From assembly GCF_005885635.1 (NCBI RefSeq), contig NZ_VATY01000004.1:124001-188000 (forward strand): a stretch of DNA of 64,000 nucleotides. Reading direction: 5' to 3'. Each line of letters begins with the position of its first letter. The first letter of the stretch is position 1. Source of the stretch: Maribacter algarum (ex Zhang et al. 2020) (GTDB lineage Bacteria > Bacteroidota > Bacteroidia > Flavobacteriales > Flavobacteriaceae). Below the pieces are notes generated by a model. The model saw nothing but the letters and a program-made list of their open reading frames with translations. It made no database searches and was not told the origin of the DNA. This document shows positions 38,755 to 60,800 of this stretch, in pieces. The position numbers and the translations under genes were made by a program.

Positions 38755-40068
38755 TTATACGGCATCAGATAAACTGGTGAAAGTGAAATCCCGAATTTTC
38801 ATATACGGAATCAAATTACCATCAACCCTCTCTTGTTTCCCAAGGGTTTCCAAGTTATTCAGCATAATAATCGGGCTTTCATTAAATCTCAAATTCTTGA
38901 TAGGATATTTGATAGCACCATTCTCAATATAGAAAGTTCCGTCTCTTGTAAGTCCCGTATAAAGTAATGTTTGTGGATCTACCGAACGGATATACCATAA
39001 GCGTGTCACCAAAATTCCTTTTTTAGTGCTTTTGATTAAATCATCCAAGGAATCATCACCTCCTGCCATGATAAAGTTGCTTGGAAACGGGACTGGGTCT
39101 ACGCCCTTTTCCTTGGCCCAAAATCTGCCATAGGCTAAGTTTTTGACGACTCCATTTTCAATCCAACTAGTTTTCTTTAAAGGTTGACCTGCACCATTCC
39201 AGGTAGCACTAGGCACCTCAATATTCAATGGGTCTGACCAAAGTTGTACTCGTTCATCAACAATTTTATCGCCGAGTTTATTTCCGCCTTCTTTGGACAT
39301 GAAACTTCTTCCTTCATCTGCTGAACGCGCACTAATAGCTCGCCCAAGTCCATTTAGTAGACCTAATCCGGCCGATGGTTCTAAGATTACGGTGTATTTA
39401 CCTGGTTCGATTGCTTTTGCCTCCCTTGACATAACCGCTTTGTCAATTGCGACTTTTGACGCTTCCTTCGCATCAAATTTGCTTACATCATTTACATCTC
39501 TAGTTACCCAACCAGAACCTGTACCATCGTTTGTACGCATGGTAACCGTAAATTCAAGATTAGTCTCTTTATTGTAAGCGAAAAGTCCTTTGGAGTTCAT
39601 CATTGCACTGAATCCTGCAGAATCATCTAAAAACCCTGCCGCTGTAACATCTTTGGCTACAGCAGGTTCAATACTGCTATTTGCAACCTCAGCACGAAAC
39701 TCAGGAGTAATATTAGCCGTTGATTCGACATAGGTAATTGAATTGTCATACACCTGCGGACCCAATGGGCCCATAAACTCAGGATTCTCCGGAGAAAGCT
39801 TTGCAAGCTCCTCTGATCTAGCCACCACTCTTTTCAAAGATTCATCATCGAATTCGTCTATTGTTGCGGTACCCATTTGCTTACCAAAATTGGATTGTAC
39901 CACCAAGGTCTGATTTGAACGATGCCCAGCGGTAGAAACTGAATTTCGAGCATAGCGGATATTCCCACTTTCGCTCCCTTCTAAATTAACTTCGCAAGCA
40001 TCAGCTTTGGAAAGGCTAAGTGCCTTTTCCATTATCTTTCTTGCTTCTTCTTCTGTATATATTGCCAT
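38755..40068 (-). CDS. TldE/PmbA-type protease subunit
   Basis: A 437-residue metallopeptidase-related protein of the PmbA/TldE family, the partner of TldD. Typical parts: TEEEARKIMEKALSLSKADACEV, the glycine-rich middle and the SFMSKEGGNKLGDKIVDERV region. TldE lacks the full catalytic HExxxH motif carried by TldD, as here. It is 28 bp after the TldD gene, and the pair forms the first part of a long minus-strand operon reaching MoxR. Confidence 0.88.
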   Translation of the reverse strand: MAIYTEEEARKIMEKALSLSKADACEVNLEGSESGNIRYARNSVSTAGHRSNQTLVVQSNFGKQMGTATIDEFDDESLKRVVARSEELAKLSPENPEFMGPLGPQVYDNSITYVESTANITPEFRAEVANSSIEPAVAKDVTAAGFLDDSAGFSAMMNSKGLFAYNKETNLEFTVTMRTNDGTGSGWVTRDVNDVSKFDAKEASKVAIDKAVMSREAKAIEPGKYTVILEPSAGLGLLNGLGRAISARSADEGRSFMSKEGGNKLGDKIVDERVQLWSDPLNIEVPSATWNGAGQPLKKTSWIENGVVKNLAYGRFWAKEKGVDPVPFPSNFIMAGGDDSLDDLIKSTKKGILVTRLWYIRSVDPQTLLYTGLTRDGTFYIENGAIKYPIKNLRFNESPIIMLNNLETLGKQERVDGNLIPYMKIRDFTFTSLSDAV

Positions 40069-40096
40069 TGTAATTATCTTTTAATGAAACTGGAGA

Positions 40097-41862: not shown

Positions 41863-42594
41863 TTATGAACTCAATTCATCCCAATCGTAATATGAGATTT
41901 TCGTAACATGATTTCTGACCGCCACTGCAGCAATATAATCCGAAGCTGGTTTAAAGGAAAACAAGTTCCATTCGACTTTCTCTTTTAAATTCCATTGAGT
42001 TTCTAATAGTTTTGCCTCTTCATCATTTTCTAAGGAAACGGCAAACTTATCCAAGGGAAATGAGAGTCCGCTGCCTTCTGCTTTGATAAATGATTCTTTT
42101 CGTGTCCAACAGCGAAAGAAAGCCGCGGGCAAATTTTCTTCGGATTGTCTCTCTAAGACTTCAATCTCTTTTTTAGAGAAGAAATTCTGTGCTAATTCCA
42201 AAACATCGAAATCATATTTTATTTTTTCAATGTCAACTCCTATTTCAGTGTTCCTGAAGAAGGCAAAAGCAGCCCTATTTCCTGAATGGGATACGTTGAA
42301 CTTTAAGTTACTTTCAAAATCAAGGATTGGCTTTCCATAGGAGGTGTATTTAAACTTTATATCCTTTGCCTTCATATCCAGATAACTTCCTAATAAAAGT
42401 CTTAGAATCCCGCGGGAAATAATATAGCAATCTCTGTCCTTTTCAAATTTGAATTTTCCACTGCGAGCGCGTTCATCAGTCGAAAGTATGGAATGAAAAG
42501 AGTCAAGCCTGTTCTTATTTTGATTGAAATCACAATACCAGAAATGGATTGTTTTATCAGTAAGGCTTTTTTTCTTTAATTCCATTTCCTCCAT
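41863..42594 (-). CDS. 4'-phosphopantetheinyl transferase (Sfp-type)
   Basis: A 243-residue PPTase. The metal- and CoA-binding motifs are GVDIEKI (with Asp and Glu) and CWTRKESFIKAEGSG (the W-x-x-K-E motif). Length and sequence fit the Sfp group that modifies NRPS, PKS and ACP carrier domains. It overlaps the glycosyltransferase gene by one base (TAATG, stop/start sharing A at 42594), so translation is coupled. Its natural targets are the two NRPS carrier domains and the stand-alone ACP in the same locus. Confidence 0.94.
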   Translation of the reverse strand: MEEMELKKKSLTDKTIHFWYCDFNQNKNRLDSFHSILSTDERARSGKFKFEKDRDCYIISRGILRLLLGSYLDMKAKDIKFKYTSYGKPILDFESNLKFNVSHSGNRAAFAFFRNTEIGVDIEKIKYDFDVLELAQNFFSKKEIEVLERQSEENLPAAFFRCWTRKESFIKAEGSGLSFPLDKFAVSLENDEEAKLLETQWNLKEKVEWNLFSFKPASDYIAAVAVRNHVTKISYYDWDELSS

Positions 42595-43948: not shown

Positions 43949-46900
43949 TTAAACCGAGAACTCGTCTATTCTGGCAGAAACCTCTTTAACGTCTGGTTCT
44001 TCAAATAAATTTATGTGAGCCCCCTTCGTTCGAGCTACCTTGACTTCTCCGGATACCAAAGTCTGCCATGATTCTACAATCTCGGTATTTATGCTTTCTT
44101 CTTCTTTATCGGTAAGTATGATTGCCACCTGACCACTTACTGGATTCCAGTCATATACTTTACAAATCTTTCCTAAGTTAGCATTCATTTCTAGCAGTGC
44201 CTTTTCTTCAGGAGTTGCCCTAGCTTTGGAAAACCTTGATTTGTAGTGGACCCATCTCGTTGAAACCATAGCAACAAGGGTTTTAACAGGATTCCTTAAA
44301 GAGCGCTTCAAAAAGCCTTTGACGCGCATTTTCAAACGTTTGGGGGTATTCAAGTTCCAGGGGTCAGCCATAGTGTCCATTACAATCAAATTGGCAACCT
44401 GCCCTTGTTCACTTAGCTGCTTGGCCATTTGGTGACCTACAGCGACACTGAAACAATACACCATAATATTATAAGGCCCCTCAGGCTGTAAATTACGCAT
44501 TGCTCTGAGATAGTCAGTGGCCATTTGCTCTATACTTTCATGAATACCTTTTTCAGCGTAAACACCCGAGGCTTGAATAGCATAGATGGGGCGATTTGCA
44601 TCTATATGCTTAGTTAAGACATTATAGAAGAAAATATGCCCTCCTCCGGCATGAATACAAAAGAGAGGATTCTTCGAGCCTTCTTTACGCAAAGCAACTA
44701 AATAATCCCATTCTTGGTCTTGGGTTTTCTTGGAAGCTAAGAAATCTGCTAATTTCGAAATGGTCTGATAATCAAATATTTGATTGGGGGAAAGCAGCAT
44801 TCCCTCCTTTTTGGCTTTTGAAATGAACTGAATACTTAGAATAGAATCTCCCCCTAAATCAAAAAAGTTATCATCTGTACTAATAGTATCCATTTGGAGT
44901 ACTTCTTTCCAAAGATCCAATAATTTCGATTCCAAATCATTGGCTGGTAAAATCAATTCTTCAGAGTTCAGTACTGATTCTTCAATTCGAAGCTTTTGTA
45001 AACCGAGTTTATCGATTTTTCCATTCGGTAAAGTGGTAATTTCTTCAACCTGAATTATTAAGCTAGGAACCATATAATCTGGCAATCGGTCCTTTAGATA
45101 TGTTTTGAGTTCTTTGACATCCAAATTAACATCAGCTGTCACATAACCTGCTAAACGTTTCGAATCGTTGTCTCCAAAGGTCTCCACCAGTACAACAACC
45201 CGCTTCAGATCATTATATTCTTGAATGGTCCTTTCGATTTCATCGATTTCAATGCGATAACCACGTATTTTGACCTGTTGGTCCGACCTCCCTAAAAATT
45301 CGATGGTGCCATCTGAACGATATCTTCCTAAATCCCCAGTCTTATACAATTTATCTTTGGGAGAATTCCCAAAAGGATTTTCCACATATGCTTTTAACGT
45401 TAATTCTGGTCTCTTATAATATTCTCCAGAAAGCCCAACTCCACCAACATATATTTCACCTACGGCACCGAGGGGAACCCTGTTCAAAAATTCATCTAAA
45501 AGATAGATTTCTGCATTTGCCACGGCTTTTCCTAACGGGACAGTTGCCGTTAAATGTTCTTTCACAATTTTATGAGCAATACACCAAACAGTAGCCTCAG
45601 TAGGGCCGTATTCATTATACAATTCAACAGCATCGAATTTTTCAAAATGTGCTGCGCACAAGGATACTGGACATGCTTCACCAGCAACCATAACAGTGTC
45701 TAAACTTTTCAGTTTAGAAGTATTTCCATGTTCTAAAATTAAATTATAAAGCGACGGCAGCATTAGCGTATGACTCACGCCATTTTGAGCAATCACTTCT
45801 TCTATTCTAGAAATATCTTGTTCAATACGGTTTTCCGCGATTATTAGGTTTCCTCCTGTACAAAGTGTCCAAAAGATACCCGCTTTTGAGCTATCAAAGG
45901 AAATGGAGGACATCAGCAAAAATACCTCCGGATTTGTATTGTAAAATTCCAATCTACCACCCGTGGAATTGATGATGTTCTTATGTGTTATGGGAACGCC
46001 TTTAGGGTTTCCTGTACTCCCAGAAGTATAAATCATATATGCCAAATCGTTCTCCTCCACTTTCGGAAGCTCTTCCTGGATACCATCAATACTATCCGAA
46101 GAATCAATCGATATCAAATGACTATCAAAATTCGAGAACAAATGGCATAGTTCTGAATGCGTAACAACAATATTCACCTCAGCATCAGTAAGCATGAAAT
46201 CAATGCGCTGAGCGGGGTATTTTGGATCTATTGGCACGTACGCACAACCTGCCTTTAATATGGCAAGCATACCTACAATCATGTCAAGAGAGCGGTCAAT
46301 ACATAAGCCAACAATCTCGTTCCTATTTTTAGTTTTATTGAGGATTTTTTTCGCCTGTAAAGCTGCCTTATCATTCAGTTTTTTATAGCTCATCTTATCA
46401 TCCATGTAGCTAACAGCTATATTTTCAGGATGTTTAGAACTTATATCAGAAATGATATCATGAATACCGGAATAATCGGCGAAAGGATTTTCAACTTTAG
46501 AATGCTGAAGGTTAAAAAACTTACTTTCCTTTTCAGTAAGCATAGGGACTTCAGAAATAGATCGATTTGAGTTTTTAACGATTCCCTCCAAAAGATTTTT
46601 AAAATGCTCTTGAAATCTATCGATGGAAGTTGCCTCAAACAAATCACTGGTATACTCAAAAGTGGAGGATAGTATTCCTTCTTCCTCAGAAATATAAAGT
46701 GTAAGGTCAAACTTTGATACTCCTGCATCAAAAAATCCGTGTTCTAAAGTAAGTTCAGCTCCAAAGGAGGGCGTTTTGGGTACCGCATGGTACAAAAACA
46801 TTACCTGGAAAAAAGGATTTATCGAAAGTGAACGTTCTTGTTTCAGTTCTTTTACCAAGGTATCAAAGGGCACATCCTTGTTTGAAAAGGCGTCCAATGT

Positions 46901-47956
46901 GGTTTGCTTTACCTGTTTCACTAATTCTTTGAAAGGCATGTTTGGAGAAAGGTCTGTTCTCAGAACCACGGTATCATTGAAAAATCCGATAAGATTTTCA
47001 AGTGCCTTTTGATCCCGGCTAGCAACAGGGGAGCCTATAAGAATATCTTTTTGACCACTATATCTAAAAAGTAAGGTGTAATAAACGGAAAGAAATAAGA
47101 CATAAGGTGTTACTTCTAACTCTTTTGCTAATTCGAGGATGGAAGTAGATAATTCTTTAGTAAAGAACTGTGTTGGACTCGCCCCCCCCTTAAAACTTGG
47201 TTCAGCTGGTTTTGGGAAATCCGTAGGAAGATTGATATATGGAATATCACCGGACAACTTTTCTTTCCAGTAGTTCAGTTGATTCGAATCTATATCTTGA
47301 TTTTGTTGCCAGTACGTAAAGTCCGAATATTTAATACTCGAATTCAAGTGATCCATTACAGCATCTGAACATAATGACTTGTAATGTTCTGCCCATTCTT
47401 TTCGTAACACCCCCATTGACCACTTATCAGTAGAAATATGATGTAAGGTTAGCAACAAAGCATGTTTTGTTGCATGAATCTTAATCAAAGAAACAAGAAC
47501 CATCGGATGTTTGGAAAGGTTGAAAGAATACTGCGCATCTGTTAACATAAGCTCCTTCGCGGATTCCTCTGCTTCCGTTTCATCCAGATTGCTTAGGTCA
47601 TGGTGCGTAACCTTAATGTTAGCTGAAGGCTCAACTTTGAGAAAAAGTTCACCATCCTCCATATGATATGTTGAACGGAGTATATCATGATTATCACATA
47701 CCAGCTCTAATGCTTTCAAGAGCTTTTCCGTATCTAATTTTCCTTTAAAAACATAACGTTCTGAATAATTGTAAAATGGACTTTCGGGATATAACTGTTG
47801 TAAAAACCACAATCTTCGCTGACCATGGGATAAAGGAATGACAGCATCAACCGGCGCTTTAAGTATCTTAGGGGAACCAGCTTCAGATTTATTCTTCGAC
47901 TTCCATTGACTTAGCAATGAAGCCTTGTCTTTTTGTAATTCTTTTTCTTTTTTCAA
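43949..47956 (-). CDS. NRPS module C-A-T-TE (terminal module)
   Basis: A 1335-residue non-ribosomal peptide synthetase. Condensation domain: HHISTDKWSM, His172-His173 with Asp177, the HHxxxD motif with Lys replacing the usual Gly. Adenylation domain: IYTSGSTGNPKGVPITH, YNEYGPTEATVW, YKTGDLGRYRSDGTIEFLGR and LPNGKIDK. Reading the specificity residues by alignment to GrsA gives DSAMMAEVWK, which I cannot assign. Carrier domain: DLGGDSILSIQF with Ser1038 for phosphopantetheine. Thioesterase: nucleophile Ser1170 in VYCFSVAVG (CxSxA, not GxSxG), Asp in VMDTMADP, His in KGAHINLFEEP. It starts with TTG because no ATG lies in the first 90 codons. It follows the HupE gene by 11 bp, and the thioesterase places it last on the assembly line. 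Confidence 0.93.
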   Translation of the reverse strand: MKKEKELQKDKASLLSQWKSKNKSEAGSPKILKAPVDAVIPLSHGQRRLWFLQQLYPESPFYNYSERYVFKGKLDTEKLLKALELVCDNHDILRSTYHMEDGELFLKVEPSANIKVTHHDLSNLDETEAEESAKELMLTDAQYSFNLSKHPMVLVSLIKIHATKHALLLTLHHISTDKWSMGVLRKEWAEHYKSLCSDAVMDHLNSSIKYSDFTYWQQNQDIDSNQLNYWKEKLSGDIPYINLPTDFPKPAEPSFKGGASPTQFFTKELSTSILELAKELEVTPYVLFLSVYYTLLFRYSGQKDILIGSPVASRDQKALENLIGFFNDTVVLRTDLSPNMPFKELVKQVKQTTLDAFSNKDVPFDTLVKELKQERSLSINPFFQVMFLYHAVPKTPSFGAELTLEHGFFDAGVSKFDLTLYISEEEGILSSTFEYTSDLFEATSIDRFQEHFKNLLEGIVKNSNRSISEVPMLTEKESKFFNLQHSKVENPFADYSGIHDIISDISSKHPENIAVSYMDDKMSYKKLNDKAALQAKKILNKTKNRNEIVGLCIDRSLDMIVGMLAILKAGCAYVPIDPKYPAQRIDFMLTDAEVNIVVTHSELCHLFSNFDSHLISIDSSDSIDGIQEELPKVEENDLAYMIYTSGSTGNPKGVPITHKNIINSTGGRLEFYNTNPEVFLLMSSISFDSSKAGIFWTLCTGGNLIIAENRIEQDISRIEEVIAQNGVSHTLMLPSLYNLILEHGNTSKLKSLDTVMVAGEACPVSLCAAHFEKFDAVELYNEYGPTEATVWCIAHKIVKEHLTATVPLGKAVANAEIYLLDEFLNRVPLGAVGEIYVGGVGLSGEYYKRPELTLKAYVENPFGNSPKDKLYKTGDLGRYRSDGTIEFLGRSDQQVKIRGYRIEIDEIERTIQEYNDLKRVVVLVETFGDNDSKRLAGYVTADVNLDVKELKTYLKDRLPDYMVPSLIIQVEEITTLPNGKIDKLGLQKLRIEESVLNSEELILPANDLESKLLDLWKEVLQMDTISTDDNFFDLGGDSILSIQFISKAKKEGMLLSPNQIFDYQTISKLADFLASKKTQDQEWDYLVALRKEGSKNPLFCIHAGGGHIFFYNVLTKHIDANRPIYAIQASGVYAEKGIHESIEQMATDYLRAMRNLQPEGPYNIMVYCFSVAVGHQMAKQLSEQGQVANLIVMDTMADPWNLNTPKRLKMRVKGFLKRSLRNPVKTLVAMVSTRWVHYKSRFSKARATPEEKALLEMNANLGKICKVYDWNPVSGQVAIILTDKEEESINTEIVESWQTLVSGEVKVARTKGAHINLFEEPDVKEVSARIDEFSV

Positions 47957-47967
47957 GTAGCAAACTT

Positions 47968-49239
47968 TTATTCCACGGGGCTTCTGAGTCCTAAGGCCCT
48001 TAAAATATCACCACCAAAAGTTCGAATACTTTCGTCCAATGGTAAATCGATGTCAAAAGCACGTTCAAATAGCCAGTACAGCGAAATTATGATTAGAAGT
48101 CCAGACAAATAGACTAGAAGTTTTGGGTATAATTTCAATTTTCTTAAGAAATAAAGTACAGGGAAAATCAGAGCGATAATTAATACTTGACCTATTTCAA
48201 CTCCGATATTAAATCCTAATAAAGTGAGGGTCAAAAACTCTCCTTTAAATCCTAACTCGCCCATAACGCTAGCAAATCCGAAGCCATGAAAAAGACCGAA
48301 TACAAAAGCAATCAACCAGTCTTTTCCTTTAAATATGGGTTTTATATTGTGATAGGCTGCCAAACCAATTGACAAGGCGATAATTGACTCTACCAATCGA
48401 GAAGGCAAAACAATTATATTCAACGCGGCCAAGCTCAGCGTAATGGTATGCGCAATTGTGAAGAACGTAACGATTTTTAAAATGTACATAAAGGCTGGTC
48501 TAAATTTCTTGACTGGTTCCCAGCCCCATATATTAAATTTACTTTCACCAACCTCAATATCGCCACCTACCAACGCAGGTTTTGAGCGGCGCACAACAGA
48601 TGGTAAAATCAAGGCAAGTAAAAAGAGTATATGGTCTAAACCTATCCAAATATGCCAAATCCCCTGTTCCACCATGGCAACAAAGCCTTTCCAATAAGAC
48701 TTTTCAGTTAAATCAAGTGTTTTAGTAACCTTACCTTTTGTAAAATCCAAAGCGAACATTGTTTCGTTGTTCACTAAGCCTGCTTTCCAATTATACTCCA
48801 TGGTTAGCAAATTTCTTGTATTCGGTATTTCATTGATAAAAGCAGAATACGTCACGACTAAGTCATCAGGCAAAGTCTCAGAGTTCTCCAAATGGAAAGG
48901 AATTTTTACAAAAAAACCAAAACTGGTCCAAACCATGGACGTATCATCTTCCGTAAAAATAATTTTGTGCTTCCCATATTTGGATGAAAATGAACTTGTC
49001 TTCAACAAATAGGTCTTAATCATTTCGACATGAGGTTCTACATCCTCCCACTCAGGATATTTAGGTAAGCTAAGTCCAAAAGCATCATTGAGTTGATTCA
49101 CATTAATCTCAAAACGTGCATCAATACCTGCTTCTTCATAAACACGCATGTAGATGATACTTTGATTTGGTTGATGTGAAAATGTTAAAATAGGAAACAG
49201 CAGAAAAGCCCAAAGAATGAGCAGAAGTAGTTTTTTCAT
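47968..49239 (-). CDS. HupE/UreJ family membrane protein
   Basis: A 423-residue protein with a signal peptide (ending near TFSHQ), an extracytoplasmic beta domain (residues about 25-190), then at least six hydrophobic segments (LDHILFLLALILP, FTIAHTITLSLAALNIIVLP, FGLFHGFGFASVMGELG and others). The HupE/UreJ type 2 architecture and motifs LDHILF, FTIAHT and FGLFHGFGFAS fit metal transporters or permeases linked to nickel, cobalt or copper. It heads the leftward operon, directly upstream of the NRPS, glycosyltransferase and PPTase genes. The next operon across the intergenic region carries a TonB receptor. Confidence 0.9.
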   Translation of the reverse strand: MKKLLLLILWAFLLFPILTFSHQPNQSIIYMRVYEEAGIDARFEINVNQLNDAFGLSLPKYPEWEDVEPHVEMIKTYLLKTSSFSSKYGKHKIIFTEDDTSMVWTSFGFFVKIPFHLENSETLPDDLVVTYSAFINEIPNTRNLLTMEYNWKAGLVNNETMFALDFTKGKVTKTLDLTEKSYWKGFVAMVEQGIWHIWIGLDHILFLLALILPSVVRRSKPALVGGDIEVGESKFNIWGWEPVKKFRPAFMYILKIVTFFTIAHTITLSLAALNIIVLPSRLVESIIALSIGLAAYHNIKPIFKGKDWLIAFVFGLFHGFGFASVMGELGFKGEFLTLTLLGFNIGVEIGQVLIIALIFPVLYFLRKLKLYPKLLVYLSGLLIIISLYWLFERAFDIDLPLDESIRTFGGDILRALGLRSPVE

Positions 49240-49656: not shown

Positions 49657-49884
49657 ATGAACGAAAAAATAATAGCTTTCATCAAGAATGAAATTACGAC
49701 AGAACCATTGCTAGAAATAGATTCTGAAGATAACCTTTTGGAAAATGGAATTGTAGATTCTATGGGAATGATGAGACTCATCCTTTTTCTTGAAAAACAG
49801 TTTAAGAAGCGTGTTCCAACAGAGGATATGACTCTTGAGAATTTCAAAACTGTTGAAAAGATAGCCCTTTATTTTTCAGCCTAG
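49657..49884 (+). CDS. Stand-alone acyl carrier protein
   Basis: A 75-residue carrier protein. The phosphopantetheine Ser is in NGIVDSMGMMRLILFLE (the DSMG motif, DSL/DSM type). Helix pattern and acidity are typical of ACP. It is the first gene of the rightward operon, 16 bp before the second NRPS gene. A discrete ACP here most likely delivers a starter acyl or amino-acyl group to the NRPS condensation domain. It is distinct from the fatty-acid ACP, which is usually next to fabF (not in this window). Confidence 0.92.
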   Translation: MNEKIIAFIKNEITTEPLLEIDSEDNLLENGIVDSMGMMRLILFLEKQFKKRVPTEDMTLENFKTVEKIALYFSA

Positions 49885-49900
49885 AGACCAAAGTTATTCT

Positions 49901-52900
49901 ATGGAAGAAAGAAATGAAAATGCTTTATCGCTAACCCAAAGCCAGTTACAGCTGTGGGCAGGTCAAAAGCTTAATCCAAATACACCTTTACATAATACGA
50001 CACATTCTTTCAAAATCTTTGGAAGGATTGATGAGCCTATTTTTCAAAATGCTTTTCAAAGCCTTGTAAATAAAATAGATGTATTGCGAATAAATTTTGG
50101 AGAAGAAGATGGAATTCCGTTTCAGTTTATTCTAGAAGAATTAGAGCATACTACAGATGTGGTAGATTGCTCCACTTGGGCAGAAGCCGATATCAAAGAA
50201 TGGCTTCGTAACAGATCCCAAAACAAGCTTGATCTTTCTAAAAAAGCATTTGATACCGCCTTACTAAAAGTGGGCGAAGAAAAGTATATCTGGTTTCTTA
50301 ATATGCATCATCTAATTACAGATGCGGTTTCAGCAACCTTAATATTCAAAAATCTTTCAGCAATTTATACTGGTCTCAGTGAGAATACTACTGATGAAGT
50401 ATTGGATTTTCCAAAGTTTCAGTCCTATATTGATTTCGAGAAAGGAGAACGATTAAATTCTGACCATGACGATATTAAAAAATATTGGAAAGATAAGGTT
50501 GAATCAATCAAAGGAAATCCATATTTATATGGAGCTCGCTATCTTAAGAAAACTACTGAATCAACCCGAGTAACCTTAAAATTAGGTACTGAACGTTCTG
50601 AAAAGCTTAAAAAATTAGCAGAAAATCCAGAAATTAAAGGATGGACACAAAACTTGACGTTATTCAATTTGTTCGCTACCATCTATGCCTCATTCCTTCA
50701 TCGGGTGAGTGGTCAAAAATCCATTTCCTTTGGAGCACCAATGCACAACAGAGCAAATAGACCTTTCAAAGAAACTGTCGGACTATTTATAGAGATATTC
50801 CCAATTGGGGTTGATTTTAATGATGAGGATACATTTTTTGATGTTCTAAATCGGATAAAACTAGAAAGCGGCAATTACTTGCGGAATGCCCAACCAGGTA
50901 TGGTTACGCCAGAAATAAGTGGAAGCTTTAACAGCATTTTGAATTTTATCAGTGCTAGCTTTTCTGATTTTAATGGTTTCGAAGTACAATCAGAATGGAT
51001 GCACCCGGGTCATATCGATATATCACACCAAATGCGTTGTCATGTAGTCGATTTTGATGATACCGGAGAACTAGAACTCTTGTTTGATTTAAATCATAGC
51101 GTTTTTGATGAAAAAACCATTGACAAAGTTCCGCAACATTTCCTGAATCTAATGGATGCCTTTTTGAGTGACATTCATTCGCCTATTGGAAAATCAAGTT
51201 TATTATCTAATGAAGAAATAGAAAGTAAAATAGTTATTGGTACTGACAAGCCTTCTCAAAATCTCATTTTGAATCAGTTTGCTACTATCACTAAATCTGT
51301 TTCAAGCCATACCTCCATAACACAAAAAGAAAATAGCTTAAACTATCGAGAACTGGATGAGAAGTCAAATCAATTGGCAGCCTTCTTAAGAAAATGTAGC
51401 ATTGAAAAAGGACAAAAGGTCGGAATTCACATGTATCGTTCTATAGACTATATAGTGAGTGTTCTTGCGGTTTTAAAAGTAGGAGCTAGTTTTATACCAA
51501 TTTCTTCAGATCAACCTGTGGAACGGGTAAAATTCATTCTTTCAGATGCAAATTGTGCTTTGCTATTAACAAATTCCGGACTTGAAAATGAAATTGAAGG
51601 AGGCTCAACTCCCATCTTATCTTTAGAAAAGAATCAGTCCGAAATTGATGAAATGAGTTCCACTGACCTGAACATTGCGATTCAAAAAGAGGATTTAGCA
51701 TATGTTTTATATACTTCGGGCTCAACTGGAAACCCTAAAGGAGTGCTGATTTCGCACGGTTCTTTGGCCAACTATTTATCGTGGGCAAAATCATTCTACA
51801 AGAGTGATAAACCTTTTGTTTTCCCATTGTTTACTTCTATAGGGTTTGATCTAACCATCACATCAACATTCCTGCCTTTGATTACGGGAGGCGCAATAGA
51901 GGTTTATAAAGAAAGTGGTCATGGTCCTGATATTTCGTTAATGGAAGTATTAGAAGAAAACAAAGTCAATAGCATAAAACTCACCCCATCGCATTTGGCT
52001 TTAATTCAAGGGAATGATAATACAGACTCTCAAATCAGAACAATGATTGTTGGCGGTGAAGACTTTAAAACCAAAATCGCTGTGGGCATTCAAAGTAGAT
52101 TTGGAAAGGACCTAAGAATTTTCAACGAATATGGCCCAACAGAATCGACAGTAGGCTGTATTGTTTCTAAATTCAACAAAGACAAGCACACTGATACTTC
52201 GGTGCCCATTGGTAGGCCTATTTATGGTTCAAAAGCTTACATTTTTGATGACTACATGAACTTAGTGCCCGATGGTGTAATCGGTTCATTGTTTATGGGT
52301 GGAGAAGGATTAGCTAAAGGATATTTAAATTTGCCAGAATTGACGGCTGAAAAGTTTATACCAAATCCTTTTGATTCAAATGATAAAATATATCACACCG
52401 GTGATTTAGCCCGAATCAATTCTGAGGGTGAATATGAATACTTGGGCCGAGTAGATGAACAGGTAAAACTGAAAGGCTTCCGTATTGAATTATCAGATAT
52501 AGAGGCTAACTTGCTAAAGCACAATAGTATTGAAAATACCGCTGTAGTGCTTATTGAGAATGAAAAAGCAATTCCAGAAAATGAAGTAATTAACTGTTCT
52601 GATTGTGGTTTACCATCTAACTATCCAAATACAGACTTTGATGAATACGGAGTTTGTCATGTATGTAATGCATTTAAAGGATATAAAGAACAGGCTCAGA
52701 AATATTTTAAAACCGAAGATGAGCTTCAAAAAATATTAATATCGAAAAGAGGACAAAGTCCGAATTACGACTGTATTTCTCTTTTAAGTGGTGGAAAAGA
52801 TAGCACTTATATCCTTGCCCAACTTATCAATATGGGCTTAAAAGTGCTTGCATTCACATTAGATAATGGATATATATCTGACCAAGCAAAGGGTAACATA

Positions 52901-54043
52901 AATCGTATTGTAAGTAAGTTAAATGTGGATCATATCTATGGGACTACTGAACATATGAACAAGATATTCGTTGACAGCCTTCACCGCCATCATAATGTAT
53001 GTAACGGTTGTTTTAAAACGATTTATACTCTAGCTACTCAAATAGCTTTAGATAAACAAATACCATTCGTTGTTACAGGTCTTTCTCGTGGGCAGTTTTT
53101 CGAAACTCGCTTGACCGAAGAATTATTTTGGGATGAAAATGCAGATGTAGCTAAAATTGACGATACTATTCTTGAAGCAAGAAAGTTATACCATCAAGAA
53201 GAAGATGCCGTTAAAGAGCTGATGGATGTCTCTGCTTTTACTAAGGATGAAACTTTTGATAAGGTCCAGTTTGTTGACTTCTACCGTTATACCGATGTAA
53301 CGCTGGAGGAAATGCTAAAATTCTTAAAGGAGAAGGTAGATTGGGTTAGACCAACAGACACAGGGCGCTCAACAAATTGTACTATTAATCAATTGGGCAT
53401 CTATGTACATAAAAAAGAAAGAGGCTATAGCAACTATTCCTTTCCCTACAGTTGGGATGTCCGTATGGGGCACAAAACCAGAACGGAAACACTGGAAGAA
53501 ATCAATGAAGTCATTGACGAAGTCGAGGTGAAACGTATAATGGAAGAAATCGGATATACCGAATCAAGTGAAAGCGAGTTAGAACAAAAGCGTTTGGTAG
53601 GTTATTATACTGGAAAACAAAAAATTAGCTCTGCTGAACTAGCAAATCACTTGAAGAAAGAGCTTCCTGCCCATATGGTGCCAACTCATTTCAAACACAT
53701 TGATGAATTGCCTTTAACAGCAAACGGAAAAGTAGATAAAACCGCACTCAAAGCTTTAAACAATTCCCAGTTGGAGATGGAGACGCCATTTGTCGCTCCT
53801 GAAGGTGAAATCGAAGAACTTTTGGCCTCAATTTGGAAAGAGGTTTTGAGACTGAAACAGGTAGGTGTTCATGATGACTTCATTGCTTTGGGGGGGCATT
53901 CGCTGGCGGCAATTCGAGTGACGGCAAGAATTAATGAAGAGGTTGAAATGAAATTCCCGTTGAACAAAATATTTGAACTTCCAACAATAGCAGAATACGC
54001 GAAGTATATCGAGCAAACACTTGTAGCACTATTGGAGGACTAA
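49901..54043 (+). CDS. NRPS C-A-T with PP-loop ATPase domain inside the A domain
   Basis: 1380 residues. Condensation domain: MHHLITDAVSA (His136-His137, Asp141). Adenylation domain: YTSGSTGNPKGV (about residue 604), FNEYGPTESTVG (about 741), YHTGDLARINSEGEYEYLGR, LPLTANGKVDK. The specificity residues read DLTKIGEVGK, a code known for asparagine. Between AVVLIENE and RLVGYYTGK (residues about 890-1228, DNA about 52570-53586) lies an extra domain: a zinc-finger-like CSDC..CHVC (Cys899, 902, 919, 922), a PP-loop SGGKDS (963-968), CNGC (Cys1034, 1037) and a lone Cys1160. This resembles N-acetyl sugar amidotransferases and thiolating PP-loop enzymes. The insertion site is that of methyltransferases in interrupted A domains. 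The carrier Ser1334 is in LGGHSLAAIR. No thioesterase, so it acts before the C-A-T-TE protein. Confidence 0.9.
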   Translation: MEERNENALSLTQSQLQLWAGQKLNPNTPLHNTTHSFKIFGRIDEPIFQNAFQSLVNKIDVLRINFGEEDGIPFQFILEELEHTTDVVDCSTWAEADIKEWLRNRSQNKLDLSKKAFDTALLKVGEEKYIWFLNMHHLITDAVSATLIFKNLSAIYTGLSENTTDEVLDFPKFQSYIDFEKGERLNSDHDDIKKYWKDKVESIKGNPYLYGARYLKKTTESTRVTLKLGTERSEKLKKLAENPEIKGWTQNLTLFNLFATIYASFLHRVSGQKSISFGAPMHNRANRPFKETVGLFIEIFPIGVDFNDEDTFFDVLNRIKLESGNYLRNAQPGMVTPEISGSFNSILNFISASFSDFNGFEVQSEWMHPGHIDISHQMRCHVVDFDDTGELELLFDLNHSVFDEKTIDKVPQHFLNLMDAFLSDIHSPIGKSSLLSNEEIESKIVIGTDKPSQNLILNQFATITKSVSSHTSITQKENSLNYRELDEKSNQLAAFLRKCSIEKGQKVGIHMYRSIDYIVSVLAVLKVGASFIPISSDQPVERVKFILSDANCALLLTNSGLENEIEGGSTPILSLEKNQSEIDEMSSTDLNIAIQKEDLAYVLYTSGSTGNPKGVLISHGSLANYLSWAKSFYKSDKPFVFPLFTSIGFDLTITSTFLPLITGGAIEVYKESGHGPDISLMEVLEENKVNSIKLTPSHLALIQGNDNTDSQIRTMIVGGEDFKTKIAVGIQSRFGKDLRIFNEYGPTESTVGCIVSKFNKDKHTDTSVPIGRPIYGSKAYIFDDYMNLVPDGVIGSLFMGGEGLAKGYLNLPELTAEKFIPNPFDSNDKIYHTGDLARINSEGEYEYLGRVDEQVKLKGFRIELSDIEANLLKHNSIENTAVVLIENEKAIPENEVINCSDCGLPSNYPNTDFDEYGVCHVCNAFKGYKEQAQKYFKTEDELQKILISKRGQSPNYDCISLLSGGKDSTYILAQLINMGLKVLAFTLDNGYISDQAKGNINRIVSKLNVDHIYGTTEHMNKIFVDSLHRHHNVCNGCFKTIYTLATQIALDKQIPFVVTGLSRGQFFETRLTEELFWDENADVAKIDDTILEARKLYHQEEDAVKELMDVSAFTKDETFDKVQFVDFYRYTDVTLEEMLKFLKEKVDWVRPTDTGRSTNCTINQLGIYVHKKERGYSNYSFPYSWDVRMGHKTRTETLEEINEVIDEVEVKRIMEEIGYTESSESELEQKRLVGYYTGKQKISSAELANHLKKELPAHMVPTHFKHIDELPLTANGKVDKTALKALNNSQLEMETPFVAPEGEIEELLASIWKEVLRLKQVGVHDDFIALGGHSLAAIRVTARINEEVEMKFPLNKIFELPTIAEYAKYIEQTLVALLED

Positions 54044-54048
54044 CAAAC

Positions 54049-54516
54049 ATGCAAAAAGGATTCTTAAAAGGCTTAAAGCCATTTCTTATAAAACGTTTAG
54101 CATTGCTGATAGGTCTTTGCTATTTGTTGAATCCAATGCAAAAACAAATTAGTATTATTTTTCATGAGGTTTCGCATGCGCTTGAAATTCCAAATTATGT
54201 AATGTCGCATAGCCCAAATTCAAGCTATGACCACCAATCCTATGACCACATAGACTATCATGTTGATGATATAACCCATGAACACATATTGGTAGATTTC
54301 TTTGATTCAGTCTTTAAGGCTTTTGATGAAAATGATGGAGCTGAAGATTCTCTTTTTACCCAAAATAAAATTGATAAACATATAACTACGTATCAGTTTC
54401 ATATTCAAAAACATTTTACAATATCGGTTCCAGAAAAATTTTGGTTCACCCAGGATAAATTGGAGTCAGGGCATCGAAAAAGTTTGAAAGAACCTCCACA
54501 ATACTTCCTTATCTAG
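54049..54516 (+). CDS. His-rich membrane-anchored protein
   Basis: A 155-residue protein 5 bp after the NRPS stop. Its N-terminus has a basic hydrophobic segment (LKPFLIKRLALLIGLCYLL), a likely membrane anchor or uncleaved signal. A His/Asp-rich stretch follows (SPNSSYDHQSYDHIDYHV, then DITHEHILVDF), with further His in KIDKHITTYQFHIQKHF. It may bind divalent or cuprous metal. No known family was recognised. Its place between the NRPS and TonB receptor genes points to metal or metallophore handling, but this is inference. Confidence 0.75.
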   Translation: MQKGFLKGLKPFLIKRLALLIGLCYLLNPMQKQISIIFHEVSHALEIPNYVMSHSPNSSYDHQSYDHIDYHVDDITHEHILVDFFDSVFKAFDENDGAEDSLFTQNKIDKHITTYQFHIQKHFTISVPEKFWFTQDKLESGHRKSLKEPPQYFLI

Positions 54517-54645: not shown

Positions 54646-56877
54646 ATGAAAAATTCATTATTATATTTTTTATTCTTCAGTCTTACAACAATAGTAAGTG
54701 CACATGAACTTAGCGGCACCGTTGTGGATCAGGACAATATTCCAATTGATGGAGTTGGTGTCTTTAACAAAACTACAGGAGGTTATACCTATACGAATGT
54801 TGCCGGTTATTTTGAGCTAGACGACATATCCGTCGGAGATCTAATTATCATCAATAGTTTAGGTTTCAAAACCCAAGAAATCACGATAACCGAAAATCAG
54901 CTTGATGCTAACATAAATATTATACTTGAAGAAGCTGCCGTTTCATTGGATCAGGTAGTTATTGTTTCAAAGGTGAATGCATTAAGTCAGTTGGTCAATA
55001 TTGATGTGAAAGCAAACCCAGTCAAATCATCTCAAGAGATTCTCCGGAAGGTTCCTGGGTTGATTATTGGTCAGCACGCAGGTGGTGGAAAAGCAGAGCA
55101 GATTTTCCTGAGAGGGTTTGATATAGACCACGGAACAGATATTACAATTGACGTGGACGGACTCCCTGTAAATATGGTTTCTCATGCTCACGGACAAGGT
55201 TATGCAGATATGCACTTTATTATTCCAGAAACTATCGAAAACATTGACTTTGGAAAAGGGGCATATTATGCAAATAAGGGAAATTTTAATACGGCAGGAT
55301 ATGTAGATTTGAAAACAAAGTCCCGTATCGATGATAATCAGTTGTCGCTTGAGGCAGGAATGTTCAATACAATCAGAACAGTAGGAATGTTTAAAATAAC
55401 CGAGGGAGATAACAGTAATGCATATGTCGCTTCGGAATTGGTTCTTACCGATGGAGCTTTTGAATCACCACAAAACTTTAATCGTTTGAACTTAATGGGA
55501 AGGTATAATTTCAACAATCACGAAGACCAAGAACTCAGCCTTTCAATTTCCCACTTCCAAAGTAAATGGGATGCATCAGGTCAAGTGCCGCAGCGTGCAA
55601 TTGATCAAGGTTTAATAACCCGTTTTGGGGCAATTGACGATACTGAGGGGGGTAATACAAGCCGATCTAATTTTTGGGTAAATCATAGCAAACAGTTGGA
55701 TGAACATTCAAAAGTGAAATCCAAAGCATATATTTCAAAATACGATTTTGAATTGTTTTCGAATTTTACATTTTTCTTGGAGGATCCGGTAAATGCCGAT
55801 CAAATCCGTCAGAAAGAAGATCGAACAATTATAGGAGCAGAAACGGTTTACGAACATTCTGTTCATGTTGGTGATCATGATTCGCAATTGAGATATGAAA
55901 CCGGATTAGGCTTTCGCTATGATGACGTCAATGATGTTCAATTATCGCGAACTAAAAACAGGCAAGAATTGCTAGAAAGGTTAGCCTATGGGAATGTCGA
56001 TGAATTGAATGGTTACGGATTTTTAAATCTAACCTACAAAAAGAACAAATGGACCATCAACCCAGGACTTCGATTAGACTATTTCAAATTTGATTATGTG
56101 AATCTATTGTCGGAAACATATGATAGTAAAAGCGAAAATAAGATATTTGTTGGGCCTAAGTTGAACGTTATTTATGCCGCTTCTCCTAACCTTCAAATAT
56201 TCGGAAAAACTGGAATTGGATATCATTCCAACGATACAAGAGTGGTAGTCGCAAACAGCGGTGAAGATATTCTGCCTGCTGCGTACTCTGCAGATTTAGG
56301 GGCAATCATTAAACCATCGAAAAAATTGGTTGTAAATGCGGCTCTATGGAGTCTTTTCCTGGAACAAGAATTTGTTTATGTTGGAGATGCCGCCATCGTA
56401 GAACCAAGTGGTAAAACGCGTCGTTATGGAGTCGATTTTGGACTGCGATATCAATTAACCGATTGGTTATACGCCAATGGAGATATCAATTATACCTATG
56501 CAAGAAGTACCGAAGAGCCCGAGGGACAAGACTTTATCCCTTTATCCCCTGACCTAACTTCTTCCGGTGGACTATCTTTTAGAGATTTAGGTAATTTCTC
56601 TGGGGGTCTTAATTATCGTTTTATAAAGGATAGACCTGCAAATGAAGACAATTCAATTGTTGCCGAGGGTTATTTCATAACAGATTTAAATCTCAATTAC
56701 GCTTGGAATAATTGGACATTTGGTGTTATAGTTGAGAATTTATTTGACCAAGAGTGGAATGAAACTCAATTTGCCACTGAAAGTAGGTTACTGAATGAGC
56801 CGAATTCTTTTGAGGAGATTCACTTTACCCCTGGGACACCATTTTATCTTAGAGGGAAAATATCCGTTTCATTCTAA
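54646..56877 (+). CDS. TonB-dependent receptor with CarboxypepD-reg-like N-terminus
   Basis: A 743-residue outer-membrane receptor. Signal peptide MKNSLLYFLFFSLTTIVSA, then a carboxypeptidase-regulatory-like domain (LSGTVVDQDNIPIDGVGVFN, residues about 23-105), a plug (KSSQEILRKVPGLIIGQHAGGGKAEQIFLRG and SHAHGQGYADMHFIIPETIENIDF), and a beta barrel ending in the aromatic-terminal strand RGKISVSF. No SusD gene is next to it, so it is not a standard polysaccharide-utilisation pair. In the context of HupE, the His-rich protein and NRPS genes, uptake of a metal complex or of the locus product is the best guess. It is 129 bp after the His-rich gene and may have its own promoter. Confidence 0.9.
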   Translation: MKNSLLYFLFFSLTTIVSAHELSGTVVDQDNIPIDGVGVFNKTTGGYTYTNVAGYFELDDISVGDLIIINSLGFKTQEITITENQLDANINIILEEAAVSLDQVVIVSKVNALSQLVNIDVKANPVKSSQEILRKVPGLIIGQHAGGGKAEQIFLRGFDIDHGTDITIDVDGLPVNMVSHAHGQGYADMHFIIPETIENIDFGKGAYYANKGNFNTAGYVDLKTKSRIDDNQLSLEAGMFNTIRTVGMFKITEGDNSNAYVASELVLTDGAFESPQNFNRLNLMGRYNFNNHEDQELSLSISHFQSKWDASGQVPQRAIDQGLITRFGAIDDTEGGNTSRSNFWVNHSKQLDEHSKVKSKAYISKYDFELFSNFTFFLEDPVNADQIRQKEDRTIIGAETVYEHSVHVGDHDSQLRYETGLGFRYDDVNDVQLSRTKNRQELLERLAYGNVDELNGYGFLNLTYKKNKWTINPGLRLDYFKFDYVNLLSETYDSKSENKIFVGPKLNVIYAASPNLQIFGKTGIGYHSNDTRVVVANSGEDILPAAYSADLGAIIKPSKKLVVNAALWSLFLEQEFVYVGDAAIVEPSGKTRRYGVDFGLRYQLTDWLYANGDINYTYARSTEEPEGQDFIPLSPDLTSSGGLSFRDLGNFSGGLNYRFIKDRPANEDNSIVAEGYFITDLNLNYAWNNWTFGVIVENLFDQEWNETQFATESRLLNEPNSFEEIHFTPGTPFYLRGKISVSF

Positions 56878-57807: not shown

Positions 57808-60800
57808 TTATTTTTTTACAATCAATTTTAGTCGATAAGGCATTTCAGATTTAGGTACTATAGTCATCATATAGATTCCGTTTTCAACATCTGTTAAATC
57901 CAATTCTATTCCATCTGAGGAAGTATTCAGCTTAACTCCTTCATAACTCTTTATTATTTTTCCTGTAAGATCAAAAAGATGAATTTTAGATATATCAGTT
58001 GTAGATACCGTTTGTACCGTAACAGCATTCTTAGCGGGGTTTGGATATAGTATAGGTATTACAAAAGAAGAATCGGTTTCAGCAATAACCGCTGAGCTCT
58101 CGCTGGCATCAACTATACCAGCTCGTTTTCCACTACTCGAACAATTTAATGCATTATCTCCAAGACCACTAGGCAGTTTCGTGGTCTTCGTCACATATAG
58201 TTTGTCGATACCTGCGCCGTCTTCGCGATGGCCTATGTCTATTGTATTGGCTCCCTCTGGAAGGTCGAAGGTCAGGAAAACGGTATTGTTCTCCCTATCA
58301 TGTACCTGGTGCCAGCTGAAACTGCTATTGCCGGGTATAAGGTTCCAACGCAGCCAGTTACCATTGTTGACCCGTACCCAGAAACTATCGTCCTCCTGGC
58401 TCGGGACGCTCACACGTGCATAAATCCTATAAGTCCCAGACTCCGCGGTAAAATTGTACGAGATAATCGACCCTGCATCCGTTGGTGCCGAATTGTAGTT
58501 ATTCCCTGTGGGGGCCAGCAGGTACTGCCCTCCCGATGCGGAGACATCATCGATAACGCTCCAGTTCGAACCTACCGTAGCACACTCGGCCTCAAGCCAT
58601 AGCTCATCCGGGTTGCCCATGAACTCAGGGCCTACGCTTACCGATACCTCATCGAATCCTGTCTCATCCTCATCGTCGGTGACCGTCAGACGATATATAT
58701 ATGTGCCTTCCACTAAATTGCTGGCCGTAAGGTCTGGTGCGGTAGCTCCTGATAGGGTCGCTGTATTCGGACCGCTCTGCTGCGTCCATTGGTAAGCTGT
58801 TATGGAACCGCCATCTGGGTCGGTTCCCGAACCGTTAAGTGTCACACTATTTGTCGGAAGGTCAAAATCTTGATCAGGACCGGCATCGGCCATTGGAGTT
58901 TGACTCGTACTGCCTGTGCCTAAGACTTCGATCGCATTTATGATTGGATGTCTGTTGCCACCTACTGCTGCCAAGGCAGAGAAATCTATGTTCAGTACTC
59001 CACCGGTAACATTTACAGTATGGGTTTTGACCAACATCGCATCCGCACCTACCTCAGCGAAAACATCGAGGTCGTCCTCGACCAATTGCCCTTCGATGCT
59101 CACATCGAATACCCTACTTCCTACTCCGCCAGTACCTCCGCCAGTAGCCCCGAACCACAGTTCGGCGAAATGAAGGCGCACAGTGTATTCCCCATCGGTA
59201 ACCGGAATAGCATAACCCATAACCTGGGACCTACTGAAACGGAAGGACTGATACGGTTCGGGAAGACCCGTCTGCGGCCTATCGAGTGTACTTCCAGTAT
59301 CAGAGAACTGATCGGCGATAAAGTCCTCTCCAGAATAGTTCGTAGCAACACCACCTGTATTGATACGGAGTGTAAAACCGCCTGGAATGACTTCAGGGTT
59401 TACCGTTACCGATACCTCATCGAAACCGGTCTCGTCCTCATCATCAGTGACCGTCAATCGGAAGACATAGGTACCTTCCACTAAATTGTCCGCAGTTAGT
59501 TCCGTCGTCGTAGCACCTGATAGGGATGCCGTGTTCGGGCCACTTTGTTGTGTCCATTCATATCCAGTTATCGAACCGCCATCGGGATCCGTGCCCGTAC
59601 CGTTCAACGTGATACTACTTGTCGGTAAATCAATACTCTGATTCGAACCTGCATCAGCTGTTGGAGACTGGGTACCAACCTCAGGATTTATAACCACACT
59701 AATTTCATCAAAACCAGTCTCATTCTCATCATCAGTAACTGTCAAACGGAAGACATAAGTTCCTTCTATCAGATTATTTACTGTTAAATCAGCAGTGGAA
59801 GCTCCTGATAAAGAAGAAGTATTTGGCCCATCTTCCTGTGTCCATTGATAAGTTGCGATAGAACCTCCATCTGGGTCATTCCCTGAGCCGTTTAGAACAA
59901 TGCTATTTGTAGGAAGGGTAATACTCATATTTGAACCTGCATTAGCAATTGGCGGTTCCGAAGTCGTAACACAATTTGCATCAACAGCCCCAAATCCATT
60001 TGGGATGTTTGTAGTCTTCGCCACATATAGTTTGTCGATACCTGCGCCGTCTTCGCGATGGCCTATGTCTATTGTATTGGCTCCCTCTGGAAGGTCGAAG
60101 GTCAGGAAAACGGTATTGTTCTCCCTATCATGTACCTGGTGCCAGCTGAAACTGCTATTGCCGGGTATAAGGTTCCAACGCAGCCAGTTACCATTGTTGA
60201 CCCGTACCCAGAAACTATCGTCCTCCTGGCTCGGGACGCTCACACGTGCATAAATCCTATAAGTCCCAGACTCCGCGGTAAAATTGTACGAGATAATCGA
60301 CCCTGCATCCGTTGGTGCCGAATTGTAGTTATTCCCTGTGGGGGCCAGCAGGTACTGCCCTCCCGATGCGGAGACATCATCGATAACGCTCCAGTTCGAA
60401 CCTACCGTAGCACACTCGGCCTCAAGCCATAGCTCATCCGGGTTGCCCATGAACTCAGGGCCTACGCTTACCGATACCTCATCGAATCCTGTCTCATCCT
60501 CATCGTCGGTGACCGTCAGACGATATATATATGTGCCTTCCACTAAATTGCTGGCCGTAAGGTCTGGTGCGGTAGCTCCTGATAGGGTCGCTGTATTCGG
60601 ACCGCTCTGCTGCGTCCATTGGTAAGCTGTTATGGAACCGCCATCTGGGTCGGTTCCCGAACCGTTAAGTGTCACACTATTTGTCGGAAGGTCAAAATCT
60701 TGATCAGGACCGGCATCGGCCATTGGAGTTTGACTCGTACTGCCTGTGCCTAAGACTTCGATCGCATTTATGATTGGATGTCTGTTGCCACCTACTGCTG

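What the first reader, a model, noticed from the sequence alone, without database searches (positions are those of the whole stretch)
52570..53586. PP-loop ATPase domain inserted into an NRPS adenylation domain
Seen: inside the A domain of the 1380-residue NRPS, between the A8 motif and the A9/A10 motifs, is a ~340-residue domain with two CxxC zinc-type pairs (Cys899/902 and 919/922), a SGGKDS PP-loop, a CNGC pair and a lone distal Cys1160. Known: interrupted A domains mostly carry methyltransferases at this site. PP-loop enzymes of the N-acetyl sugar amidotransferase type make amidines, and related PP-loop enzymes with CxxC plus a distal Cys hold a [4Fe-4S] cluster and insert sulfur (TtuA, TtcA), while alpha-ANH enzymes make thioamides in closthioamide. 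Inference: this domain activates an amide or carboxylate of the loaded amino acid by adenylation and swaps O for N or S on the assembly line. I know of no described A domain interrupted by a PP-loop ATPase.
Basis: partly seen in the sequence, partly recalled or inferred. Interest (0 to 1): 0.93.

Follow-up and report, generated by a model that had tools for sequence, protein, structure and literature searches.

The report
AMDH-type ATPase nested in Asn adenylation domain
A peptide-building enzyme of a bacterium related to flavobacteria carries, inside the part that appears to select asparagine, an ATP-using domain of a kind already known from the antibiotics albicidin and cystobactamid, where it can turn asparagine into a nitrile; here it sits in a conserved gene cluster that looks built for making and importing a metal-binding peptide.

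Summary
In the 1380-aa NRPS (49901-54043 +) a PP-loop domain (residues 898-1229) interrupts the A domain after A8 and before A10; the best curated match to it is TIGR03573 (N-acetyl sugar amidotransferase), E 6e-38 but below that family's cut-off. The novelty claim fails: such A domains are described as the AMDH domain of CysH (cystobactamid) and in AlbIV (albicidin), where T-bound Asn becomes beta-cyanoalanine or, in CysH, isoasparagine. The window has the code reported for AlbIV, DLTKIGEVG; 20 of 20 insert-bearing A domains are DL[TS]K[IV]GEVG against 0 of 29 others. Less expected: besides the amidotransferase tetracysteine the insert has an invariant CXXC...C like [4Fe-4S] LarE, a possible reason for brown CysH; and the module is paired with a His-coded module (16 of 16 readable) near a HupE/UreJ protein (18 of 19 relatives), in Flavobacteriaceae, Saprospiraceae and Rhodobacterales. 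I read it as an AMDH module of an Asn*-His metallophore pathway. AlbIV/CysH sequences could not be aligned and no structure was predicted.

The parts
49901..54043 (+). NRPS1, C-A(AMDH-type insert)-T, 1380 aa
49916..51217 (+). condensation domain (residues 6-439)
   Evidence: PF00668 E 2.3e-61
51308..52546 (+). A core (residues 470-882); nine-letter code DLTKIGEVG = Asn/AlbIV type
52592..53587 (+). PP-loop insert (residues 898-1229), AMDH-type
   Evidence: TIGR03573; conservation
52595..52666 (+). tetracysteine C899xxC902...C919xxC922, like the zinc site of the amidotransferase family
   Evidence: zinc by analogy with LpNASAT
52787..52804 (+). PP-loop SGGKDS (residues 963-968)
53000..53011 (+). 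C1034NGC1037, aligned by profile with the CYNC pair of 8cnz; proposed [4Fe-4S] ligands
53378..53380 (+). C1160 (STNC), third proposed [4Fe-4S] ligand
53576..53731 (+). rest of A_sub with A10 motif NGKVDK (residues 1226-1277)
53819..54010 (+). carrier (T) domain (residues 1307-1370)
49657..49884 (+). small stand-alone carrier protein, 75 aa, likely starter-unit carrier (inferred)
   Evidence: PF00550 30.2 bits; match in 19 of 19 insert-bearing relatives, 49% covered in the two Rhodobacterales loci
43949..47956 (-). NRPS2, C-A-T-TE; code DSALMAEVW, His type
47968..49239 (-). HupE/UreJ-type membrane protein (metal permease family, recalled)
   Evidence: PF13795 E 6e-45; found in 18 of 19 insert-bearing relatives
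54049..54516 (+). small His-rich protein with hydrophobic N-terminus, no Pfam match
   Evidence: match in 13 of 17 Bacteroidota insert-bearing relatives
54646..56877 (+). TonB-dependent receptor
   Evidence: match in 17 of 17 Bacteroidota insert-bearing relatives, in L042 only 33% identity over 37%
41863..42594 (-). 4'-phosphopantetheinyl transferase
   Evidence: PF01648
42594..43922 (-). UGT-like glycosyltransferase, present only in part of the relatives

Best explanation
The insert is an AMDH-type (aminomutase/amide dehydratase) PP-loop domain nested in an asparagine-activating A domain. Proposed working: the A core adenylates L-Asn and loads it on the T domain (inferred from the code); the T-bound side-chain amide enters the insert; ATP bound at SGGKDS activates the amide oxygen as an adenylate (inferred from the PP-loop class); AMP leaves with the oxygen to give a beta-cyanoalanyl thioester (formation of cyanoalanine shown for CysH, inferred here), or the residue is rearranged to isoasparagine (shown in vivo for CysH). 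The tetracysteine holds structural zinc, and CNGC plus C1160 hold a [4Fe-4S] cluster near the ATP (both inferred). The modified Asn is joined to a carrier-bound starter and to His on NRPS2 and released by the TE, giving a small Asn*-His peptide that works as a metallophore taken up through the TonB receptor and HupE (inferred from gene context).
For: Published precedent: PMC12283262 (passages) gives DLTKIGEVGK for the cyanoalanine module and, for AlbIV, a 342-aa insertion probably of the adenosine nucleotide alpha-hydrolase superfamily; PMC7966384 (section 4, section 7 part 2, passages; [quoted passage not shown] Here: insert inside an A domain, similar length, SGGKD; same first nine code letters; 20 of 20 insert-bearing A domains DL[TS]K[IV]GEVG versus 0 of 29 others, and the uninterrupted relative L014 has DVWHFSLVD, Ser-like by recall. 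Insert mean pairwise identity 73.7%, T 69.7%, A core 50.2%, C 39.1% over 13 proteins. Eight Cys invariant; profile match to 8cnz with CNGC on its CYNC; CXXC-C binds [4Fe-4S] in LarE (PMC9283937 passages). Context: DSAL[IM]AEVW, DSALIAEVWK being a reported His code, in 16 of 16 readable partner modules; HupE in 18 of 19 relatives, TonB in 17 of 17 Bacteroidota relatives.
Against: No activity data for this enzyme. A [4Fe-4S] of this kind is known for sulfur insertion, which fits a thioamide as well as a nitrile. CXXC-C also occurs in 1 of 8 amidotransferase-type comparators (L036). In seven of twelve pairs with the window protein the T domain is more conserved than the insert. The Streptomyces relative L022 has the domain fused to a C domain beside an A-T with a non-Asn code, DARHASLMT. 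The A-domain rows share descent, so 20 of 20 is not 20 events. Metal and product unknown: no riboswitch in 36000-64000, no convincing shared promoter palindrome, no urease in the genome; no TonB in the two Rhodobacterales stretches and no HupE in L042.
Confidence: 0.78

Rival explanations
1. The insert makes an amidine: the Asn side-chain amide is adenylated and ammonia replaces oxygen, as in the N-acetyl sugar amidotransferases (WbpG/WbuX).
For: Best curated family match is TIGR03573; shared tetracysteine and SGGXDS; a primary amide is a fitting substrate. On the two Rhodobacterales plasmids a hisH gene lies about 12 kb from the NRPS, though in Roseovarius it stands with its own amidotransferase and HisF-like gene in a polysaccharide locus.
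Against: Below that family's cut-off (131 v. 203 bits). Fetched amidotransferases have hisH and/or HisF-like genes beside them in 4 of 6 annotated short stretches (L025, L036, L039, L040; not L037, L038), while none appeared among 30 window proteins scanned with Pfam (not every window ORF was scanned). CysH gives -18, not -1.
Confidence: 0.07
2. The insert makes a thioamide (thio-Asn): a sulfide held at the open iron of the [4Fe-4S] cluster attacks the adenylated amide, giving a soft-metal ligand for a metallophore.
For: CXXC-C as in LarE; a metal-transport neighbourhood.
Against: The characterised AMDH gives -18; no dedicated sulfur carrier among the window neighbours scanned.
Confidence: 0.08
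3. Within the AMDH reading, the insert here mainly isomerises Asn to isoasparagine, giving a beta-linked residue, rather than a nitrile.
For: Deleting AMDH from CysH abolished isoasparagine cystobactamids (PMC7966384).
Against: In cystobactamid isomerisation is more efficient after beta-hydroxylation by CysJ; no hydroxylase was seen among the window neighbours scanned. No isoasparagine albicidin is known, according to PMC7966384.
Confidence: 0.2
4. The cluster makes an antibiotic or signal rather than a metallophore; HupE and TonB are neighbours by chance or for self-protection.
For: The characterised AMDH products are topoisomerase inhibitors; no riboswitch or clear shared promoter box was found.
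Against: HupE is kept near the NRPS from Flavobacteriaceae to Rhodobacterales and the partner module is His-coded in 16 of 16 readable cases.
Confidence: 0.2

Closest known systems
AMDH domain of CysH (cystobactamid) and the alpha-ANH-like domain of AlbIV (albicidin)
   Same: PP-loop (SGGKD) domain, 342 aa in AlbIV, inside an Asn-activating A domain; code DLTKIGEVGK.
   Different: Those are stand-alone modules that feed another assembly line; here the module is C-A(insert)-T, paired with a His module, in a HupE/TonB locus. Sequences not compared.
N-acetyl sugar amidotransferases (TIGR03573; WbpG, WbuX, LpNASAT 8wex)
   Same: Tetracysteine, SGGXDS; profile match to 8wex E 6e-8.
   Different: Insert scores below the family cut-off; 7 of 8 comparators (one of them annotated QueC) lack CXXC...C; the comparators are not part of an NRPS.
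[4Fe-4S] LarE / TtuA sulfur insertases
   Same: SGGXDS plus CXXC and a distant Cys; profile match to 8cnz E 2.6e-7 with CXXC in register. That 8cnz is LarE-like is recalled; its title is 'NAD_synthase domain-containing protein'.
   Different: They insert sulfur into nucleotides or tRNA; the match begins at the PP-loop, so no counterpart of the tetracysteine was aligned.
ATP-dependent nitrile-forming enzymes (QueC/ToyM, ArtA/NitB); PDB 9lei, 9leh 'nitrile synthetase'
   Same: Amide to nitrile chemistry (PMC13060819 passages); weak profile match over the PP-loop, E 0.016.
   Different: Free enzymes; match limited to about 46 residues. That 9lei/9leh are ArtA-type is not established by a call.
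Interrupted A domains with methyltransferases (TioS, KtzH)
   Same: Insertion between a8 and a9 (PMC11355689 passages).
   Different: SAM chemistry, another kind of insert.

Membership tests
AMDH domain (CysH/AlbIV) | Nested inside an NRPS A domain | tested here: met
AMDH domain (CysH/AlbIV) | Host A domain specific for Asn; code DLTKIGEVGK | tested here: met
   First nine letters DLTKIGEVG in the window; 20 of 20 insert-bearing A domains DL[TS]K[IV]GEVG; code meaning from PMC12283262. By sequence only; no loading assay.
AMDH domain (CysH/AlbIV) | About 342 aa with ATP motif SGGKD, alpha-ANH superfamily | tested here: met
   332-residue family match, SGGKDS at 963-968
AMDH domain (CysH/AlbIV) | Sequence homology to CysH/AlbIV inserts and their seven core motifs | not testable with these tools
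   Sequences not reached; supplement not available
AMDH domain (CysH/AlbIV) | Dehydration or aminomutation of T-bound Asn | not testable with these tools
   needs biochemistry
N-acetyl sugar amidotransferase (TIGR03573) | Score over the curated cut-off 203.2 bits | tested here: not met
   131.1 bits; another gene of the same genome scores 331.6
N-acetyl sugar amidotransferase (TIGR03573) | Tetracysteine CXXC...CXXC and SGGXDS | tested here: met
   definition from PMC10607449
N-acetyl sugar amidotransferase (TIGR03573) | HisH/HisF partners next door (common, not universal: 4 of 6 annotated stretches) | tested here: not met
   none among 30 window proteins scanned; relatives were not all scanned, and the Rhodobacterales plasmids have hisH about 12 kb away
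[4Fe-4S] PP-loop enzymes (LarE, TtuA) | CXXC plus distant Cys after SGGXDS | tested here: met
   22 of 22 aligned sequences incl. L022 and L024
[4Fe-4S] PP-loop enzymes (LarE, TtuA) | Bound [4Fe-4S] cluster; three Cys within bonding distance | not testable with these tools
   structure prediction unavailable
Metallophore cluster | Metal uptake type genes in the cluster | tested here: met
   HupE 18 of 19 and TonB 17 of 17 Bacteroidota relatives, L042 weak; TonB not seen in the 2 Rhodobacterales stretches. Metal role of HupE/UreJ recalled.
Metallophore cluster | Known chelating group or metal-responsive regulation | tested here: inconclusive
   His-coded module; no riboswitch, no clear shared box

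The most novel reading that the evidence does not exclude
AMDH domains, characterised so far (in the papers seen) only in topoisomerase-inhibitor antibiotics, have a second use: a module of a conserved Asn*-His metallophore pathway shared by Bacteroidota and Rhodobacterales, in which a zinc tetracysteine and a LarE-like three-Cys [4Fe-4S] cluster together serve ATP-dependent conversion of carrier-bound Asn into a nitrile (or thioamide) that takes part in metal binding. The cluster would explain the brown colour of CysH and open the unknown AMDH mechanism to test.
Probability: 0.35. Interest if true: 0.7.

Novelty: new member of a known kind. Interest (0 to 1): 0.45.

Why it matters
It gives one group of uncharacterised AMDH domains a likely biological role, metal uptake, that can be tested in isolates among the relatives (for example Arenibacter sp. 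P308M17 and Pseudozobellia sp. WGM2, record titles). The invariant CXXC...C motif offers a concrete test of the open mechanism of assembly-line amide dehydration: the 2021 paper found no CxxCxxxC site but left the brown colour of CysH unexplained. The uninterrupted relative L014 is a ready natural comparison.

Tried and rejected
Categorically new architecture: rejected after PMC12283262 and PMC7966384. Fusion after a complete A domain: rejected, A10 follows the insert. Plain sugar amidotransferase: below cut-off. Relatives in viral contigs: one scan found none. Riboswitch control: none in 36000-64000. Shared palindromic promoter box in 11 HupE-upstream stretches (L011 dropped as a near copy of L007; L012, L015 and later loci not included): 15-mer 279.6 against control maximum 272.5, 19-mer 312.3 against 294.1; AT-rich, 6 crude shuffles each with fewer restarts than the real run, so not convincing. 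Urease as nickel user: absent; no other metal enzyme was sought. The TonB receptor has no solved relative at E 1e-10 and stays below the cut-off of all 7 NCBIfam models it matched.

In one search the second A domain of L021 read DSACIAEVW because of an alignment slip; searches give DSALIAEVW, which I use. sees only A domains caught by a YGP[TSAV]E pattern in open frames of 400 residues or more. Of one search's 22 rows, L017-L020 and L028 are the same places as L043-L046 and L042.

Recalled, from no call: positions of the Stachelhaus residues in GrsA, A-motif names, the Ser reading of DVWHFSLVD, the LarE identity of 8cnz, and the metal role of HupE/UreJ.
Full report
What is there. The 1380-aa ORF at 49901-54043 + is a one-module NRPS: C 6-439, A core 470-882, an inserted PP-loop domain 898-1229, the rest of A_sub 1226-1277, and T 1307-1370. 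The A chain is broken after the A8 region and taken up again before A10, the usual site for inserts (PMC11355689, passages). The best curated match to the insert is TIGR03573, N-acetyl sugar amidotransferase, at 131.1 bits, below the cut-off of 203.2; another gene of the genome scores 331.6. Pfam reports only QueC there, 25 bits against a cut-off of 22.

It is not a new architecture. A search for the A-domain code led to PMC12283262 (listing; passages), which says DLTKIGEVGK is compatible with cyanoalanine and that the AlbIV domain of albicidin has a 342-aa insertion, probably of the adenosine nucleotide alpha-hydrolase superfamily, suggesting Asn to cyanoalanine in situ. PMC7966384 (outline, section 4, section 7 part 2, and passages) names the domain of CysH 'AMDH', shows loss of water from T-bound Asn in vitro and isomerisation to isoasparagine in vivo, and reports homologs in several clusters of unknown product, all in Asn-type A domains. 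PMC8949500 (passages) reviews both. Earlier keyword searches had found nothing, so absence there was not evidence.

Substrate. The nine code letters of the window's A domain are DLTKIGEVG. Across the window and 20 related loci (L003-L015, L021, L023, L042-L046) a motif scan caught 49 A domains: 20 carry the insert, with 15 DLTKIGEVG, 3 DLSKIGEVG and 2 DLTKVGEVG; none of the other 29 has such a code. L014, in the same gene order but without the insert, has DVWHFSLVD, Ser-like by recall. The rows are related by descent, with L007/L011 and L021/L023 near copies, so this is an association, not 20 independent events.

Conservation and cysteines. Over 13 full-length proteins the insert has the highest mean pairwise identity, 73.7% (T 69.7%, rest of A_sub 53.2%, A core 50.2%, C 39.1%); against the window protein alone the short T domain is ahead of the insert in seven of twelve relatives. 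Cys 899, 902, 919, 922, 958, 1034, 1037 and 1160 are invariant. In the wider set of 22 aligned sequences 21 keep all eight; the Streptomyces protein L024 keeps only 1034, 1037 and 1160. The first four match the zinc tetracysteine of LpNASAT (PMC10607449, passages). CNGC...C is the CXXC-C pattern that binds a [4Fe-4S] cluster in LarE of Thermotoga (PMC9283937, passages); a profile of 8 inserts matches PDB 8wex at 6e-8, 8cnz at 2.6e-7 with CNGC aligned on CYNC and, weakly, nitrile synthetase 9lei at 0.016. Of 8 amidotransferase-type comparators (L025, L026, L036-L041; L041 is annotated as QueC) 7 lack CXXC-C and one, L036, has it; C958 is shared by all 8. PMC7966384 reports brown CysH and no CxxCxxxC motif. 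I infer an iron-sulfur cluster; nothing here shows it, and whether others have proposed it was checked only through the listings.

Neighbourhood. Upstream is a 75-aa carrier protein (49657-49884), and divergently a HupE/UreJ protein and a C-A-T-TE NRPS. Downstream are a His-rich small protein and a TonB-dependent receptor. That dehydrogenase is best matched by PigA and by a prolyl-carrier dehydrogenase model, both below cut-off; for the stand-alone A of L014, prolyl ligase 6o6e is the best PDB match after multi-module chains. TonB is matched in 17 of 17 Bacteroidota relatives (L042 33% over 37%), not in the 2 Rhodobacterales stretches. The partner module is DSAL[IM]AEVW in all 16 insert-bearing loci where it could be read; in L012, L023 and L043 it is cut off and in L042 none was found in the stretch fetched. 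PMC12283262 gives DSALIAEVWK as a His code. So the likely product is starter-Asn*-His, the starter being proline or pyrrole derived in part of the loci (inference). This looks like a metallophore system; the metal is unknown.

Spread. The insert at E 1e-25 occurs in 5 of 395 genomes sampled from the order and 2 of 395 from the phylum, the own genome included in both and the samples overlapping, and on plasmids of Roseovarius, Pseudohalocynthiibacter and Streptomyces NBC_01216 (15 of 72,556 records matched at E 1e-5, 4 over at least 80% of the query, the fourth being an annotated sugar amidotransferase). In Streptomyces it is fused to a C domain beside asnB and an A-T with code DARHASLMT, so the domain can also occur outside an A domain and perhaps acts on another substrate.

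Verdict. Observation confirmed; interpretation partly right (ATP activation of an amide, itself an inference), novelty claim wrong. Best reading: an AMDH-type domain in a probable metallophore pathway. I saw no paper describing such a metallophore in the listings (15 of 183; 20 of 27; 12 of 37), nor in passages of PMC12971057; the library lacks most subscription papers.

Noticed in passing
L014:11745-14888: Relative of NRPS1 in the same gene order but without the insert and with a Ser-like code: natural loss or swap of the interrupted A domain.
   Followed up: partly
L022:17932-20112: Streptomyces NBC_01216 plasmid protein with the PP-loop domain fused to a condensation domain, beside asnB, an A-T protein and a racemase, with a tyrosine 2,3-aminomutase gene further on.
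   Followed up: partly
L024:7728-8876: Stand-alone Streptomyces PP-loop protein with CWPC and STNC but no tetracysteine, near an acyl carrier protein and a ketosynthase gene.
   Followed up: no
L036:595-1800: An annotated N-acetyl sugar amidotransferase next to hisH that has a CXXC...C pattern aligned with that of the NRPS inserts.
   Followed up: no
window 57808-63840 -: Large ORF (2010 aa) whose gene contains a direct repeat, spacing 1830 nt, 94% identical over the 300 nt reported.
   Followed up: partly
window 38755-41737 -: Two TldD/PmbA-type metallopeptidase genes beside the NRPS2 operon; both have counterparts in L014 and one in L006.
   Followed up: no
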